Shown: positions 26,055 to 45,059 of the stretch, one piece after another
Layout: each line of letters opens with the position of its first letter
How positions within the stretch are numbered: position 1 is the stretch's first letter
Source: Ampullaceana balthica
Lineage: Eukaryota > Mollusca > Gastropoda > Lymnaeidae
Length of the DNA: 64,000 nt
Reading direction: 5' to 3'
Assembly: GCA_944989445.1 (NCBI GenBank)
Contig: CALYLW010000011.1
Coordinates: forward strand, 3,005,501-3,069,500
Notes under the pieces: model-generated
Database searches by the model: none
What the model saw: the letters and a program-made list of their open reading frames with translations, nothing else
Told to the model about the DNA's origin: nothing
Position numbers and translations under genes: made by a program

Positions 26055-26104
26055 CTCCATTTTTTAAATCTCCCATAATGTCTCACTTTTCTGCCTGCCT
26101 ACAT

Positions 26105-26490
26105 CTATTTAGTTCTTCCTTCCATACTTCACCCATCTCTTTAGAACTTCCTGCCATACTCCACCCATCTCTTTAGTACTTCCTTCCATACTTCACCCAT
26201 CTCTTTAGTACTTCCTTCCATACTCCACCCATCTCTTTAGTACTTCCTTCCATACTTCACCCATCTCTTTAGTACTTCCTTCCATACTTCACCCATCTAT
26301 TTAGTTCTTCCTTCCATACCTCACCCATCTCTTTAGTACTTCCTTCCATACTTCACCCATCTCTTAAGTACTTCATTCCATACTTCACCCATCTCTTTAG
26401 TACTTCCTTCCATACTTCACCCATTTCTTTAGTACTTCCTTCCATACTTCACCCATCTCTTTAGTACTTCCTTCCATACTTCACCCATAT
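26105..26490 (+). repeat. 32-bp minisatellite, about 12 units
   Basis: Units contain CTTCCTTCCATACTTCACCC and CATCTCTTTAGTA and repeat every 32 bp with a few substitutions. Confidence 0.92.
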
Positions 26491-26817
26491 CTGCACAGTT
26501 TGCATTACCTCACCTTGTCCTTTACTTTCTTACTTTATCTCTTGGATTCTAACCCTCCCCCTCTTTGTATCCACCCCTCTCTATGTGTTATTCCCTCAAA
26601 GTCATAATCCAACACTCGTCCCCGTCTTCCCTTATTATTTAATTTGTCTGAAAGAAAAAAGGTTACATTTTTTTTTCTTTATTCATTTCTTTATTTATTA
26701 TTATTTTTTTTTGTTGCTGGTTTGAAAGAATAAACACGCACGTTAAGCCGTAAATAAACATTCAAATAGTAGTCGAGCTTTTACTAAATATGAGACATTC
26801 GCTTTGGGAGGTAGAAC
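26491..26817. other. Unassigned T-rich sequence
   Basis: Pyrimidine-rich then AT-rich, lying downstream of the decayed coding sequence on the minus strand. No feature seen. Confidence 0.4.
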
Positions 26818-28168
26818 TTAAGCTCCAATGACCTGCCTTACAATATCATTGGCCAGCCTTATCATAAAGGCATTACAGTATTCTTCAACATGTTTAGTGC
26901 TCCTGGTCTGTCAGTATCCCTAATAGCTGCAGAGCATTCGGTTAGTAGCTGTGACATCTTCTCCTCAGCCATACATGGCAGCCCTCTACTGGTGTCCAGT
27001 TTGCGAAAAGAACTTTGTGTTAATGCTCAATCCTCTTTTTGGAAATGATGGACATGGCAGTTGGTTTCAATTCTCACAATAGTTTGCTTCTACTAGACAT
27101 TTTCATGTTCCGGTCAAGTTCTCGACCCGTGGTTTCATGAGCCCAGCCTATAAGCCAAGGATCTTTAAAATGATCTTCGAGCCACGTTTTTACTCCCATC
27201 TGAATCATTGGGTGCTCAGTTTGCTGCCGGGCTGCACCATATTTGGCTAAAAGTTCAGCTCTTTCCTGTTATGGTACTTCGTGGTCCGTGATAATTCTGT
27301 AGAGCCACTTTTCCCTCACTTGGCAATATGTCTTCTAATTTCTTCAGAGTTTCATTGAAAGTTTTCGTCAGTGAAGAGCTCAAACTTCTAGTTGGAAGCT
27401 CCAGTCGGTGAAGACTTTGACTATTTAGATGTCCATTCTCTTTGCTATAGGCATCGGCGCACTTCTTTTATCGTATCTATTGGTCGATACTGCTCCACAC
27501 TAGCCAGATAGTTCTACGTTGTCTGGTCCATTCTCGGGTATTCAATTAGCATGCCATTCCCACTTCTTCATTCTGTGGAAATTGAGCTGTGTGTATAGAC
27601 TAATCAGGCCGTTACCATTACCCGCGATAGTTCTCAGGGCTTCTTTATTCTAAAGCTCACCTGGACTATTTTTGCTAAACGCAAAAAAATTGTCCGTGAC
27701 ACGCGTATATGAAGGAGTATAGGCAGCACTCACATGTGCCCAGCGCACTGATCCATTACAATCTTTACACTATTTTGGGTATCAGGACTGATTTCTCTAG
27801 CTCGTCGACCGCACCCGTGAAGGAGCGTTTGTCTTTAGTCTTGGCCCATCGTTTTTACATTTGAAAGCAGAAGTCTTGTCGTTCTATTGTACCGTATCTT
27901 TAAACCGTTGTCACTGGTGTTACCGCTGACGGCACCGTTCGGCGTTGGCGGTGCTACGCTTGCCCAGACTTTCACGGCTGCTTTTGTTGTGGTGTATATG
28001 TACGTAGCGGACCATATACACGTCTGAGAGCTTGATTTTGTAATCTAGGTCCCCGAGCTGGATTAGAAGACTGTAAACAATGTTGATTACAAGATTGGAT
28101 ACATACACACTGACTTAGCCGTCTTACCTAAGTTTATTCTCAAGTTTTCTAGCTAGGCTCCGCTTCAT
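26818..28168 (-). pseudogene. Decayed single-exon coding sequence, ~450 codons, unidentified
   Basis: Reading the minus strand from an ATG at 28168-28166 to a TAA at 26820-26818 gives protein-like sequence throughout, but it jumps among all three frames about nine times. It also meets in-frame stops at 28126, 28117, 27652, 27516, 27271 and 27029. Good patches include PTPNGAVSGNTSDNGLKIR (near 27950), LISLYTQLNFHRMKKWEW (near 27600), KTWLEDHFKDPWLIGWAHE (near 27175) and MIRLANDIVRQVIGA just before the last stop. Each neighbouring patch begins close to where the previous one fails, as expected of one ancestral frame broken by small indels. I recognise no family. There are no introns in it, and repeats lie on both sides. 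Candidates are an old transposon protein, an endogenised viral gene such as a nucleoprotein-sized frame, or a retrocopy. Coding ancestry is fairly likely; identity is open. Confidence 0.6.
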
Positions 28169-28970
28169 TCAATTACAATTATAAGAACTGTGTTTCAAAT
28201 TGATTGAATTTGTTAATATATATGTTTATTTTCTTTCTTTATTTTATTCAAACATAGAGATTAAATTTTACTGGGGGAAAAAAAAGGGGGGGGGGTTAAA
28301 CGATTTTCGGCTATTAGGGCCTTCCTATCTTTTTGAAAAGAGTGCCCTATTCCATTAGGTAAAGGTATTTTGGTAGACGGATTAAAATAGTTAACTAAAA
28401 TCTTATACTTTAATACTTACCGTACCTAAAGGATTTTAAATTTTTTAAAATTATTTTTTAAATTAAAAAAAAATAATAATAATAATTTTTTTATTTTATT
28501 TTGTAAAGAGTGTAAGGAAAAACGGCATTACTATCGCGGTTTTCGACATCTTACACTTATAAATAACTTATTTCATCAACAGTAATGACTAATTGGATTA
28601 GTAATGGCAAAATTAGAGAACAAAGATGTCTATTTTATATTTAATACCTTACAATAAATAAAAAGTCTTTAGTGTTAAAATATAACAATAACCAAAATTG
28701 TTGTTAATAATGATTCAAAAACTTTCTTTAAAATTTTAGTACACCGACTCAGCCTTTATTTCCTTTTCGAGATGAACAAACTTAAACAGTATTTCGTCAT
28801 TGATATTTGCCATCGGACGTCAATGAAATTCGCACACACAACAGCATAAACTTTATCAGTTTTATTTTCTTGTACACGGAGTATAGGAGGGAGTATAATC
28901 ATCGTGCAAAAAAAAATAATTTAAAAAAATAAAATAAATAAATAATAAAAAATAAAAAATAAAAATAGAA
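28169..28970. other. AT-rich unassigned sequence
   Basis: Strongly AT-rich with AATAA-type low-complexity runs at 28440-28500 and 28915-28970. No feature seen. Confidence 0.45.
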
Positions 28971-29135
28971 ATCAAGATTCTAACAAATCTCGACAATCCT
29001 CGGAGGACCGAGGCGAAGTGACCCTAGATGTAATATAAATATGGAAAGATTCTTGTTTGAGGCCCCCACTAATGATGAGACTAATCGGAGGCCCTTGGCG
29101 GCTGCCTAGTTTGCCCATGCCTAAAGCCGGCCCTG
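28971..29135 (-). mobile_element. Probable DNA-transposon terminus, hAT-like
   Basis: On the minus strand the sequence starts CAGGGCCGGCTTTAGGCAT at 29135. This style of terminus (CAGGGCCGG with GGC-rich interior) is common among animal hAT-type MITEs. The opposite inverted end and a target duplication were not found, so the left boundary is arbitrary. Confidence 0.45.
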
Positions 29136-29329
29136 CTGTTATATACGAATATACGAGAAACTTTAGGGTACCTCATTCCCGCTTTATTGAAATCATATCC
29201 TCGTTTGTAAACAATAAAACATCATCGTATTATCTACCCAAAGCAGCATATAATTTCGTCTTTTCTAATAAATATTATGTTGAAGAAAGAAAAAAAAGCA
29301 ATGAGTCAATTAATTATTTAACACCGACC

Positions 29330-38811: not shown

Positions 38812-38883
38812 GATTCGTAGTGTATTGGTTATCACGTCTGCCTTGAACGTGGAAAGTCCTGGGTTCAAGCCACAGCGGGAACA
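38812..38883 (+). pseudogene. Degenerate tRNA-Val-like sequence
   Basis: CGTAGTGTATTGGTTATCAC matches the D-arm side of animal tRNA-Val, and GGGTTCAAGCC is a B box. A T run (38884-38889) follows the 3' end and could act as a pol III terminator. The acceptor stem has three mismatches, the T stem one, and the anticodon loop reads CTTGAAC instead of a valine loop. It is therefore a tRNA-derived pseudogene or a SINE head rather than a working tRNA. Confidence 0.6.
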
Positions 38884-39943: not shown

Positions 39944-42900
39944 CGAACCTTATGTTGCTGTATAATGTGGTCCATACCATCAACCTTATGTTGGTGTATA
40001 ATGTGGTCCATACCATCAACCTTATGTTGCTGTATAATGTGGTCCATACCATCAACCTTATGTTGCTGTATAATGTGGTCCATACCATCAACCTTATGTT
40101 GGTGTATAATGTGGTCCATACCATCAACCTTATGTTGCTGTATAATGTGGTCCATACCATCAACCTTATGTTGCTGTATAATGTGGTCCATACCATCAAC
40201 CTTATGTTGCTGTATAATGTGGTCCATACCATCAACCTTATGTTGCTGTATAATGTGGTCCATACCATCAACCTTATGTTGCTGTATAATGTGGTCCATA
40301 CCATCAACCTTATGTTGCTGTATAATGTGGTCCATACCATCAACCTTATGTTGCTGTATAATGTGGTCCATACCATCAACCTTATGTTGCTGTATAATGT
40401 GGTCCATACCATCAACCTTATGTTGCTGTATAATGTGGTCCATACCATCAACCTTATGTTGCTGTATAATGTGGTCCATACCATCAACCTTATGTTGCTG
40501 TATAATGTGGTCCATACCATCAACCTTATGTTGCTGTATAATGTGGTCCATACCATCAACCTTATGTTGCTGTATAATGTGGTCCATACCATCAACCTTA
40601 TGTTGCTGTATAATGTGGTCCATACCATCAACCTTATGTTGGTGTATAATGTGGTCCATACCATCAACCTTATGTTGCTGTATAATGTGGTCCATACCAT
40701 CAACCTTATGTTGCTGTATAATGTGGTCCATACCATCAACCTTATGTTGCTGTATAATGTGGTCCATACCATCAACCTTATGTTGCTGTATAATGTGGTC
40801 CATACCATCAACCTTATGTTGCTGTATAATGTGGTCCATACCATCAACCTTATGTTGCTGTATAATGTGGTCCATACCATCAACCTTATGTTGCTGTATA
40901 ATGTGGTCCATACCATCAACCTTATGTTGCTGTATAATGTGGTCCATACCATCAACCTTATGTTGCTGTATAATGTGGTCCATACCATCAACCTTATGTT
41001 GCTGTATAATGTGGTCCATACCATCAACCTTATGTTGCTGTATAATGTGGTCCATACCATCAACCTTATGTTGCTGTATAATGTGGTCCATACCATCAAC
41101 CTTATGTTGCTGTATAATGTGGTCCATACCATCAACCTTATGTTGCTGTATAATGTGGTCCATACCATCAACCTTATGTTGCTGTATAATGTGGTCCATA
41201 CCATCAACCTTATGTTGCTGTATAATGTGGTCCATACCATCAACCTTATGTTGCTGTATAATGTGGTCCATACCATCAACCTTATGTTGCTGTATAATGT
41301 GGTCCATACCATCAACCTTATGTTGCTGTATAATGTGGTCCATACCATCAACCTTATGTTGCTGTATAATGTGGTCCATACCATCAACCTTATGTTGCTG
41401 TATAATGTGGTCCATACCATCAACCTTATGTTGCTGTATAATGTGGTCCATACCATCAACCTTATGTTGCTGTATAATGTGGTCCATACCATCAACCTTA
41501 TGTTGCTGTATAATGTGGTCCATACCATCAACCTTATGTTGCTGTATAATGTGGTCCATACCATCAACCTTATGTTGCTGTATAATGTGGTCCATACCAT
41601 CAACCTTATGTTGCTGTATAATGTGGTCCATACCATCAACCTTATGTTGCTGTATAATGTGGTCCATACCATCAACCTTATGTTGCTGTATAATGTGGTC
41701 CATACCATCAACCTTATGTTGCTGTATAATGTGGTCCATACCATCAACCTTATGTTGCTGTATAATGTGGTCCATACCATCAACCTTATGTTGCTGTATA
41801 ATGTGGTCCATACCATCAACCTTATGTTGCTGTATAATGTGGTCCATACCATCAACCTTATGTTGCTGTATAATGTGGTCCATACCATCAACCTTATGTT
41901 GCTGTATAATGTGGTCCATACCATCAACCTTATGTTGCTGTATAATGTGGTCCATACCATCAACCTTATGTTGCTGTATAATGTGGTCCATACCATCAAC
42001 CTTATGTTGCTGTATAATGTGGTCCATACCATCAACCTTATGTTGCTGTATAATGTGGTCCATACCATCAACCTTATGTTGCTGTATAATGTGGTCCATA
42101 CCATCAACCTTATGTTGCTGTATAATGTGGTCCATACCATCAACCTTATGTTGCTGTATAATGTGGTCCATACCATCAACCTTATGTTGCTGTATAATGT
42201 GGTCCATACCATCAACCTTATGTTGCTGTATAATGTGGTCCATACCATCAACCTTATGTTGGTGTATAATGTGGTCCATACCATCAACCTTATGTTGCTG
42301 TATAATGTGGTCCATACCATCAACCTTATGTTGCTGTATAATGTGGTCCATACCATCAACCTTATGTTGCTGTATAATGTGGTCCATACCATCAACCTTA
42401 TGTTGCTGTATAATGTGGTCCATACCATCAACCTTATGTTGCTGTATAATGTGGTCCATACCATCAACCTTATGTTGCTGTATAATGTGGTCCATACCAT
42501 CAACCTTATGTTGGTGTATAATGTGGTCCATACCATCAACCTTATGTTGCTGTATAATGTGGTCCATACCATCAACCTTATGTTGCTGTATAATGTGGTC
42601 CATACCATCAACCTTATGTTGCTGTATAATGTGGTCCATACCATCAACCTTATGTTGGTGTATAATGTGGTCCATACCATCAACCTTATGTTGCTGTATA
42701 ATGTGGTCCATACCATCAACCTTATGTTGCTGTATAATGTGGTCCATACCATCAACCTTATGTTGGTGTATAATGTGGTCCATACCATCAACCTTATGTT
42801 GCTGTATAATGTGGTCCATACCATCAACCTTATGTTGCTGTATAATGTGGTCCATACCATCAACCTTATGTTGCTGTATAATGTGGTCCATACCATCAAC

Positions 42901-45059
42901 CTTATGTTGCTGTATAATGTGGTCCATACCATCAACCTTATGTTGCTGTATAATGTGGTCCATACCATCAACCTTATGTTGCTGTATAATGTGGTCCATA
43001 CCATCAACCTTATGTTGCTGTATAATGTGGTCCATACCATCAACCTTATGTTGCTGTATAATGTGGTCCATACCATCAACCTTATGTTGGTGTATAATGT
43101 GGTCCATACCATCAACCTTATGTTGCTGTATAATGTGGTCCATACCATCAACCTTATGTTGCTGTATAATGTGGTCCATACCATCAACCTTATGTTGGTG
43201 TATAATGTGGTCCATACCATCAACCTTATGTTGGTGTATAATGTGGTCCATACCATCAACCTTATGTTGGTGTATAATGTGGTCCATACCATCAACCTTA
43301 TGTTGCTGTATAATGTGGTCCATACCATCAACCTTATGTTGCTGTATAATGTGGTCCATACCATCAACCTTATGTTGGTGTATAATGTGGTCCATACCAT
43401 CAACCTTATGTTGCTGTATAATGTGGTCCATACCATCAACCTTATGTTGGTGTATAATGTGGTCCATACCATCAACCTTATGTTGCTGTATAATGTGGTC
43501 CATACCATCAACCTTATGTTGCTGTATAATGTGGTCCATACCATCAACCTTATGTTGGTGTATAATGTGGTCCATACCATCAACCTTATGTTGGTGTATA
43601 ATGTGGTCCATACCATCAACCTTATGTTGCTGTATAATGTGGTCCATACCATCAACCTTATGTTGCTGTATAATGTGGTCCATACCATCAACCTTATGTT
43701 GGTGTATAATGTGGTCCATACCATCAACCTTATGTTGCTGTATAATGTGGTCCATACCATCAACCTTATGTTGCTGTATAATGTGGTCCATACCATCAAC
43801 CTTATGTTGCTGTATAATGTGGTCCATACCATCAACCTTATGTTGCTGTATAATGTGGTCCATACCATCAACCTTATGTTGCTGTATAATGTGGTCCATA
43901 CCATCAACCTTATGTTGCTGTATAATGTGGTCCATACCATCAACCTTATGTTGGTGTATAATGTGGTCCATACCATCAACCTTATGTTGCTGTATAATGT
44001 GGTCCATACCATCAACCTTATGTTGCTGTATAATGTGGTCCATACCATCAACCTTATGTTGGTGTATAATGTGGTCCATACCATCAACCTTATGTTGCTG
44101 TATAATGTGGTCCATACCATCAACCTTATGTTGGTGTATAATGTGGTCCATACCATCAACCTTATGTTGCTGTATAATGTGGTCCATACCATCAACCTTA
44201 TGTTGCTGTATAATGTGGTCCATACCATCAACCTTATGTTGCTGTATAATGTGGTCCATACCATCAACCTTATGTTGCTGTATAATGTGGTCCATACCAT
44301 CAACCTTATGTTGCTGTATAATGTGGTCCATACCATCAACCTTATGTTGCTGTATAATGTGGTCCATACCATCAACCTTATGTTGCTGTATAATGTGGTC
44401 CATACCATCAACCTTATGTTGCTGTATAATGTGGTCCATACCATCAACCTTATGTTGCTGTATAATGTGGTCCATACCATCAACCTTATGTTGCTGTATA
44501 ATGTGGTCCATACCATCAACCTTATGTTGGTGTATAATGTGGTCCATACCATCAACCTTATGTTGGTGTATAATGTGGTCCATACCATCAACCTTATGTT
44601 GCTGTATAATGTGGTCCATACCATCAACCTTATGTTGCTGTATAATGTGGTCCATACCATCAACCTTATGTTGCTGTATAATGTGGTCCATACCATCAAC
44701 CTTATGTTGCTGTATAATGTGGTCCATACCATCAACCTTATGTTGGTGTATAATGTGGTCCATACCATCAACCTTATGTTGGTGTATAATGTGGTCCATA
44801 CCATCAACCTTATGTTGGTGTATAATGTGGTCCATACCATCAACCTTATGTTGGTGTATAATGTGGTCCATACCATCAACCTTATGTTGGTGTATAATGT
44901 GGTCCATACCATCAACCTTATGTTGGTGTATAATGTGGTCCATACCATCAACCTTATGTTGGTGTATAATGTGGTCCATACCATCAACCTTATGTTGCTG
45001 TATAATGTGGTCCATACCATCAACCTTATGTTGCTGTATAATGTGGTCCATACCATCAA
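39944..45059. repeat. 36-bp minisatellite of 142 units, 5.1 kb
   Basis: The unit contains TTATGTTGCTGTATAATG and GGTCCATACCATCAACC. The units seem to differ only at one position (39958 plus multiples of 36), which is C in 114 units and G in 28. G units are numbers 2, 5, 20, 65, 72, 76, 79, 88, 91-93, 96, 98, 101, 102, 105, 112, 115, 117, 128, 129 and 134-140 counted from the left. Units 21-64 are all C. Because 36 is divisible by three and the unit lacks stops in four frames, four overlapping frames of more than 1,700 codons exist. None has gene context. The near-identity points to very recent or ongoing expansion. Confidence 0.98.

What the first reader, a model, noticed from the sequence alone, without database searches (positions are those of the whole stretch)
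26818..28168. Shattered ~450-codon coding sequence hidden on the minus strand
Ordinary ORF calling misses it because it changes frame about nine times and has at least six in-frame stops. Yet protein-like patches follow one another in order from an ATG at 28168 to a stop at 26818, each starting where the last fails. It is intron-free, flanked by repeats and about the size of a transposon protein or a viral nucleoprotein. I do not recognise the family, so it could be an endogenised viral gene, an undescribed element or a retrocopy.
Basis: partly seen in the sequence, partly recalled or inferred. Interest (0 to 1): 0.75.

Follow-up and report, generated by a model that had tools for sequence, protein, structure and literature searches.

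The report
Decayed tail of a LINE retrotransposon
The hidden broken gene is real but ordinary: it is the worn-out last third of a common type of jumping gene (a LINE retrotransposon), and better-preserved copies of the same kind sit elsewhere in the same genome.

Summary
On the minus strand, about 28161-26783, lies the decayed 3' part of a non-LTR retrotransposon (LINE). It aligns to residues 842-1303 of a 1303-residue ORF2 that is open elsewhere in the same genome (endonuclease, reverse transcriptase, RNase H, zinc-binding tail). A frameshift-tolerant alignment scores 601; 100 shuffles and 92 other window segments reach at most 83. It needs 5-15 frame changes and 10-12 stops depending on settings. 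The fragment is most likely an old insertion truncated at its 5' end by target-primed reverse transcription, then left to decay; that step is inferred. The window copy shows no target-site duplication, and only 2 of 7 truncated relatives checked do. Its last ~274 aligned bases are 67% identical to young copies. The read-through gives no significant Pfam match of its own. LINE clade and host species were not settled.

The parts
26783..28161 (-). decayed LINE copy lacking its 5' two thirds: last ~462 residues of ORF2 plus the 3' untranslated end
   Evidence: frameshift-tolerant alignment to L009 / L031 ORF2, score 601-608 with loose penalties; with stricter penalties it covers 28046-26827; 3' end alignment
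28047..28161 (-). remnant just downstream of the RT core (ORF2 residues ~842-879); the weakest part
   Evidence: protein-level score 38 for 28047-28168, reached by 2 of 500 shuffles; no support at DNA level (score 122, reached by 79 of 200 shuffles)
27726..28046 (-). region between RT and RNase H (ORF2 residues 880-983)
   Evidence: tblastn 43% identity
27233..27604 (-). RNase H domain remnant (ORF2 residues ~1023-1158); the first Asp of the active site is replaced and the Glu falls at a frame change, while the middle Asp and the His remain
   Evidence: alignment; domain boundaries from the Pfam RNase_H hit on relatives; assignment of the active-site residues is from recall, the D-E-D-H/R-D pattern is quoted in a passage of PMC4640811
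26925..27067 (-). zinc-binding (zf-RVT-like) tail remnant; one Cys and the His of the CxxC...H...C pattern are gone
   Evidence: alignment; zf-RVT match on relatives
26818..26820 (-). TAA stop, in the homologous place of the relatives' ORF2 stop
   Evidence: GGA GCT TAA in the window against AGA GTC TAA in relatives
26783..26817 (-). short 3' untranslated end closing with CATATTTAGT
   Evidence: 8 of 16 relatives printed side by side carry the same ten bases at that place, the other 8 diverge at or before them; blastn of the 3' end

Best explanation
It is a dead copy of a non-LTR retrotransposon (LINE) of the RNase H-bearing kind, consisting of the 3' third only. Most likely an active relative's RNA was copied at a nicked target site starting from its 3' end, copying stopped after about 1.4 kb, and the fragment has since collected frameshifts, stops and substitutions without selection. 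Shown: homology, strand, homologous stop and 3' end, no detectable element sequence upstream, relatives with complete ORF2 in the same genome. Inferred: insertion by target-primed reverse transcription with 5' truncation (I put that step at about 0.8), and absence of function now. The confidence given is for the identity as a dead LINE ORF2 fragment.
For: tblastn E = 1.4e-37 in ordered collinear patches. Alignment score 601 against a chance maximum of 83. More distant proteins from public collections hit it too: of 4 tried out of 15 found, P0002 at E = 2.5e-6, P0003 at 2.2e-5, P0004 at 0.003, P0013 not at E <= 1. Relatives with complete ORF2 of 1303 and 1301 residues with endonuclease, RT and RNase H domains. 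74 matches of the L009 protein in the genome with only 72 of 17577 candidates scored. Same terminal ten bases as 8 of 16 relatives. Several relatives start at different points inside the element but share the 3' end, e.g. L010, L011, L016, L020, L023, L024. 6 of 11 copies checked have direct repeats of 11-19 bases at both ends. No element signal in 28169-28290 and 28291-28412 (417 and 407 of 500 shuffles reach the scores), nor out to 32900 (scores 37-43, like the opposite strand and a control stretch; no shuffles).
Against: The window's own read-through has no significant Pfam match (best E 0.41), so the domain assignment rests on relatives. No convincing target-site duplication at the window copy (longest shared strings 7 and 6 bases). 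Of the 11 relatives checked for direct repeats, 5 have none, and among the 7 that are truncated at the 5' end only 2 (L010, L011) have one; no shuffle control was run for these repeats and 2-9 of their bases overlap the end of the element. The 28047-28161 stretch is supported at protein level only.
Confidence: 0.97

Rival explanations
1. Same identity, different history: the fragment is what a deletion or other rearrangement left of a longer LINE copy, not a 5' truncation during insertion.
For: No target-site duplication is recognisable at the window copy; only 2 of 7 truncated relatives checked have one. One relative, L014, shows an internal deletion joining its 5' leader to its 3' part.
Against: At least six relatives begin at different internal points with shared 3' ends, the pattern recalled as usual for LINEs; no upstream ORF2 piece elsewhere in the window by tblastn.
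Confidence: 0.2
2. An endogenised viral gene (for example a nucleoprotein) of unknown family.
Against: Collinear homology to the C-terminal third of a LINE ORF2 whose complete relatives have endonuclease, RT and RNase H. No dedicated search of viral proteins was run.
Confidence: 0.005
3. A chance chain of protein-like patches with no coding origin.
For: 5-15 frame changes are needed, so the freedom to fit is large.
Against: Score 601 against at most 83 in 100 shuffles and 92 other segments; DNA-level matches in the genome at E down to 4.4e-27 apart from itself.
Confidence: 0.005

Closest known systems
[quoted passage not shown] passages seen)
   Same: ORF2 order endonuclease - RT - RNase H - zinc-binding tail in the relatives; some copies truncated at the 5' end, some with target-site duplications
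   Different: The window copy is a dead C-terminal third. The clade was not assigned: no library of named LINEs was at hand. [quoted passage not shown]
Ingi and Nimb LINEs of molluscs (PMC11203168 and PMC10294476; passages seen)
   Same: I-superfamily LINEs; the only hit that bears an animal's name is a Plakobranchus ocellatus (sea slug) RT-like protein, 37% identical over 32% of the query
   Different: The host was not shown to be a mollusc, and no tree with named Ingi or Nimb references was built.

Membership tests
non-LTR retrotransposon (LINE) | ORF2 with reverse transcriptase | tested here: met
   RVT_1 E = 1e-34 and 3.8e-32 in two relatives with complete ORF2; the window copy itself begins downstream of the RT core
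non-LTR retrotransposon (LINE) | apurinic-type endonuclease upstream of RT | tested here: met
   Exo_endo_phos_2 E = 3.8e-15 and 4.3e-16 in the same relatives; not present in the window copy
non-LTR retrotransposon (LINE) | shared 3' end and variable 5' truncation | tested here: met
   3' ends (8 of 16 share the last ten bases with the window), 5' ends at different points
non-LTR retrotransposon (LINE) | no long terminal repeats | not tested
   no separate search for terminal repeats was made
non-LTR retrotransposon (LINE) | target-site duplication | tested here: inconclusive
   6 of 11 relatives checked (out of 25 loci) show 11-19 base direct repeats; the window copy shows none convincing
I group (RNase H-bearing) | RNase H domain downstream of RT | tested here: met
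   RNase_H E = 1.9e-8 and 2.6e-11 in relatives; the window copy aligns across that domain, though its read-through gives no Pfam hit
I group (RNase H-bearing) | RT phylogeny within the I group | not tested
   no named reference LINE sequences available
endogenous viral element | homology to a viral protein | not tested
   no dedicated virus search was run; the homology found is to LINE ORF2

The most novel reading that the evidence does not exclude
The window copy is a relic of an older subfamily, now represented only by decayed fragments such as L002, of a LINE that seems to do without an ORF1: full-length copies look about 4.3 kb long with a ~342-base leader and a single ORF.
Probability: 0.3. 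Interest if true: 0.15.

Novelty: new member of a known kind. Interest (0 to 1): 0.07.

Why it matters
Mainly as a calibration: a reader without tools saw a real coding fossil through many frameshifts, and the answer is a decayed LINE. For the genome it is one more old repeat to mask before gene prediction. Many copies of the same element keep open frames and are 97-100% alike, which suggests recent activity of the family; whether any copy is active was not tested.

Tried and rejected
Pfam scan of the window's read-through with X at stops: nothing significant, best E 0.41. Solved structures with the relative L009: two RNase H entries at E 0.0053 and 0.0057 only. Extension of the element beyond 28161: no signal. 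The segment 60796-62146 (+), which scored 83, got no tblastn match at E <= 1. Viral-gene and chance readings were rejected on the homology; a host-gene retrocopy likewise. The clade was left open: Pfam does not separate LINE clades and no named references were at hand.

Papers: the listings were seen; of PMC11203168, PMC4640811 and PMC10294476 only the passages shown. No claim is made that this element is absent from print.

Full report
Observation. The minus strand of 26818-28168 holds ordered protein-like patches in changing frames. They are not chance. A search of the window's own genome (1.1 Gb, 3363 contigs) with this DNA gave 48 matches at E <= 0.001, the window itself included, with only 40 of 201 candidates scored; the other 47 are 65-83% identical over parts of the query. 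Several of those places carry long open frames. tblastn of one relative's protein (L009, 614 residues) against the 64-kb window gives E = 1.4e-37 here, in three collinear pieces; its matches elsewhere in the window have E of 1.9 or more. A frameshift-tolerant alignment scores 601; 100 dinucleotide shuffles reach at most 83, the reversed sequence 71, the opposite strand 49, and 92 other window segments of the same length, both strands, at most 83 (94 scored, 2 overlapping the target set aside).

Identity. The relatives are LINEs. Two copies have complete open frames of 1303 (L031) and 1301 (L033) residues with Exo_endo_phos_2, Exo_endo_phos, RVT_1 and RNase_H above Pfam's cut-offs and zf-RVT slightly below. 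With loose penalties the fragment aligns to residues 842-1303 of the L031 protein, with stricter ones to 880-1301: the part after the RT core, the RNase H domain and the zinc-binding tail. Of four more distant proteins tried (from 15 found), three hit the fragment: P0002 at E = 2.5e-6, P0003 at 2.2e-5, P0004 at 0.003; P0013 did not. The window's own read-through, with X at stops, has no significant Pfam match (best E 0.41), so the domain names rest on its relatives.

Ends. Homology runs to about 28161 at protein level (2 of 500 shuffles reach the score for 28047-28168) and is not seen beyond: 28169-28290 and 28291-28412 are at chance (417 and 407 of 500). DNA-level comparison does not support the stretch upstream of about 28046 (79 of 200 shuffles reach the score). 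Further upstream lie other repeats, among them a high-copy one at about 29032-29137.

Damage. Depending on penalties and reference, 5-15 frame changes and 10-12 stops; the last frame change of the alignment is probably an artefact. Of the RNase H active-site pattern (residue roles recalled; D-E-D-H/R-D is quoted in a passage of PMC4640811) the first Asp is replaced and the Glu falls at a frame change; of the CxxC...H...C tail one Cys and the His are gone. Over the last 269-274 aligned bases the copy is 67-68% identical to five copies of the young family and its L035 branch, 57% to two copies of the second family, and 67-68% to five other fragments (over 264-276 aligned bases); in the tree it pairs weakly with L002 (support 0.78).

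Mechanism. In relatives the 5' start varies while the 3' end is shared. I checked 11 of the 25 loci for direct repeats at the two ends: 6 have 11-19 bases (L010, L011, L014, L031, L032, L035), of which 2-9 overlap the end of the element; 5 have none (L012, L016, L020, L023, L024; the boundaries used for L012 and L024 are doubtful). All 3 copies with a full-length outline (L031, L032, L035) have them, but only 2 of the 7 truncated ones; no shuffle control was run. Direct repeats with 5' truncation are what target-primed reverse transcription leaves (recalled). The window copy is most simply such an insertion, but it shows no target-site duplication, so a deletion within a longer copy stays open.

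Comparison with the known. [quoted passage not shown] In a bivalve-centred survey Nimb and Ingi are the only I-superfamily clades across molluscs apart from an unknown one (PMC10294476, passage). The host was not identified and no RT tree with named references was built, so the clade stays open.

Verdict. A good observation of an ordinary thing: an old, dead LINE fragment.

Noticed in passing
window 39946-45059: A 36-base satellite, 142 copies, 99% matches, with spurious open frames of 1722-1734 aa, two on each strand.
   Followed up: no
window 29032-29137: A repeat of about 105 bases upstream of the LINE fragment; most of the listed best matches are 92-96% identical (40 of 2045 candidates scored).
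   Followed up: no
window 28555-28846: Another dispersed repeat, about 290 bases at 73% identity, three matches listed.
   Followed up: no
window 26102-26492: A 32-base minisatellite of 12 copies about 290 bases from the LINE 3' end.
   Followed up: no
L017, L018, L022, L025: Some LINE copies carry tandem 54-base repeats inside ORF2, between endonuclease and RT; three of these copies are listed with open frames of 1113 (L022), 932 (L025) and 921 (place of L018) residues.
   Followed up: no
L031 1960-6251 in reverse-complement coordinates; also L032, L035: The full-length element looks about 4.3 kb long with a ~342-base leader, too short for a usual ORF1; these 3 copies have 12-13 base direct repeats at their ends.
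   Followed up: partly
P0002: A LINE-like protein filed under a Gammaproteobacteria MAG, probably eukaryotic contamination (the reading is mine).
   Followed up: no
window 38816-38877 (+): A borderline Rfam tRNA match (30 bits, cut-off 29) that ARAGORN does not report; possibly a tRNA-derived repeat.
   Followed up: no
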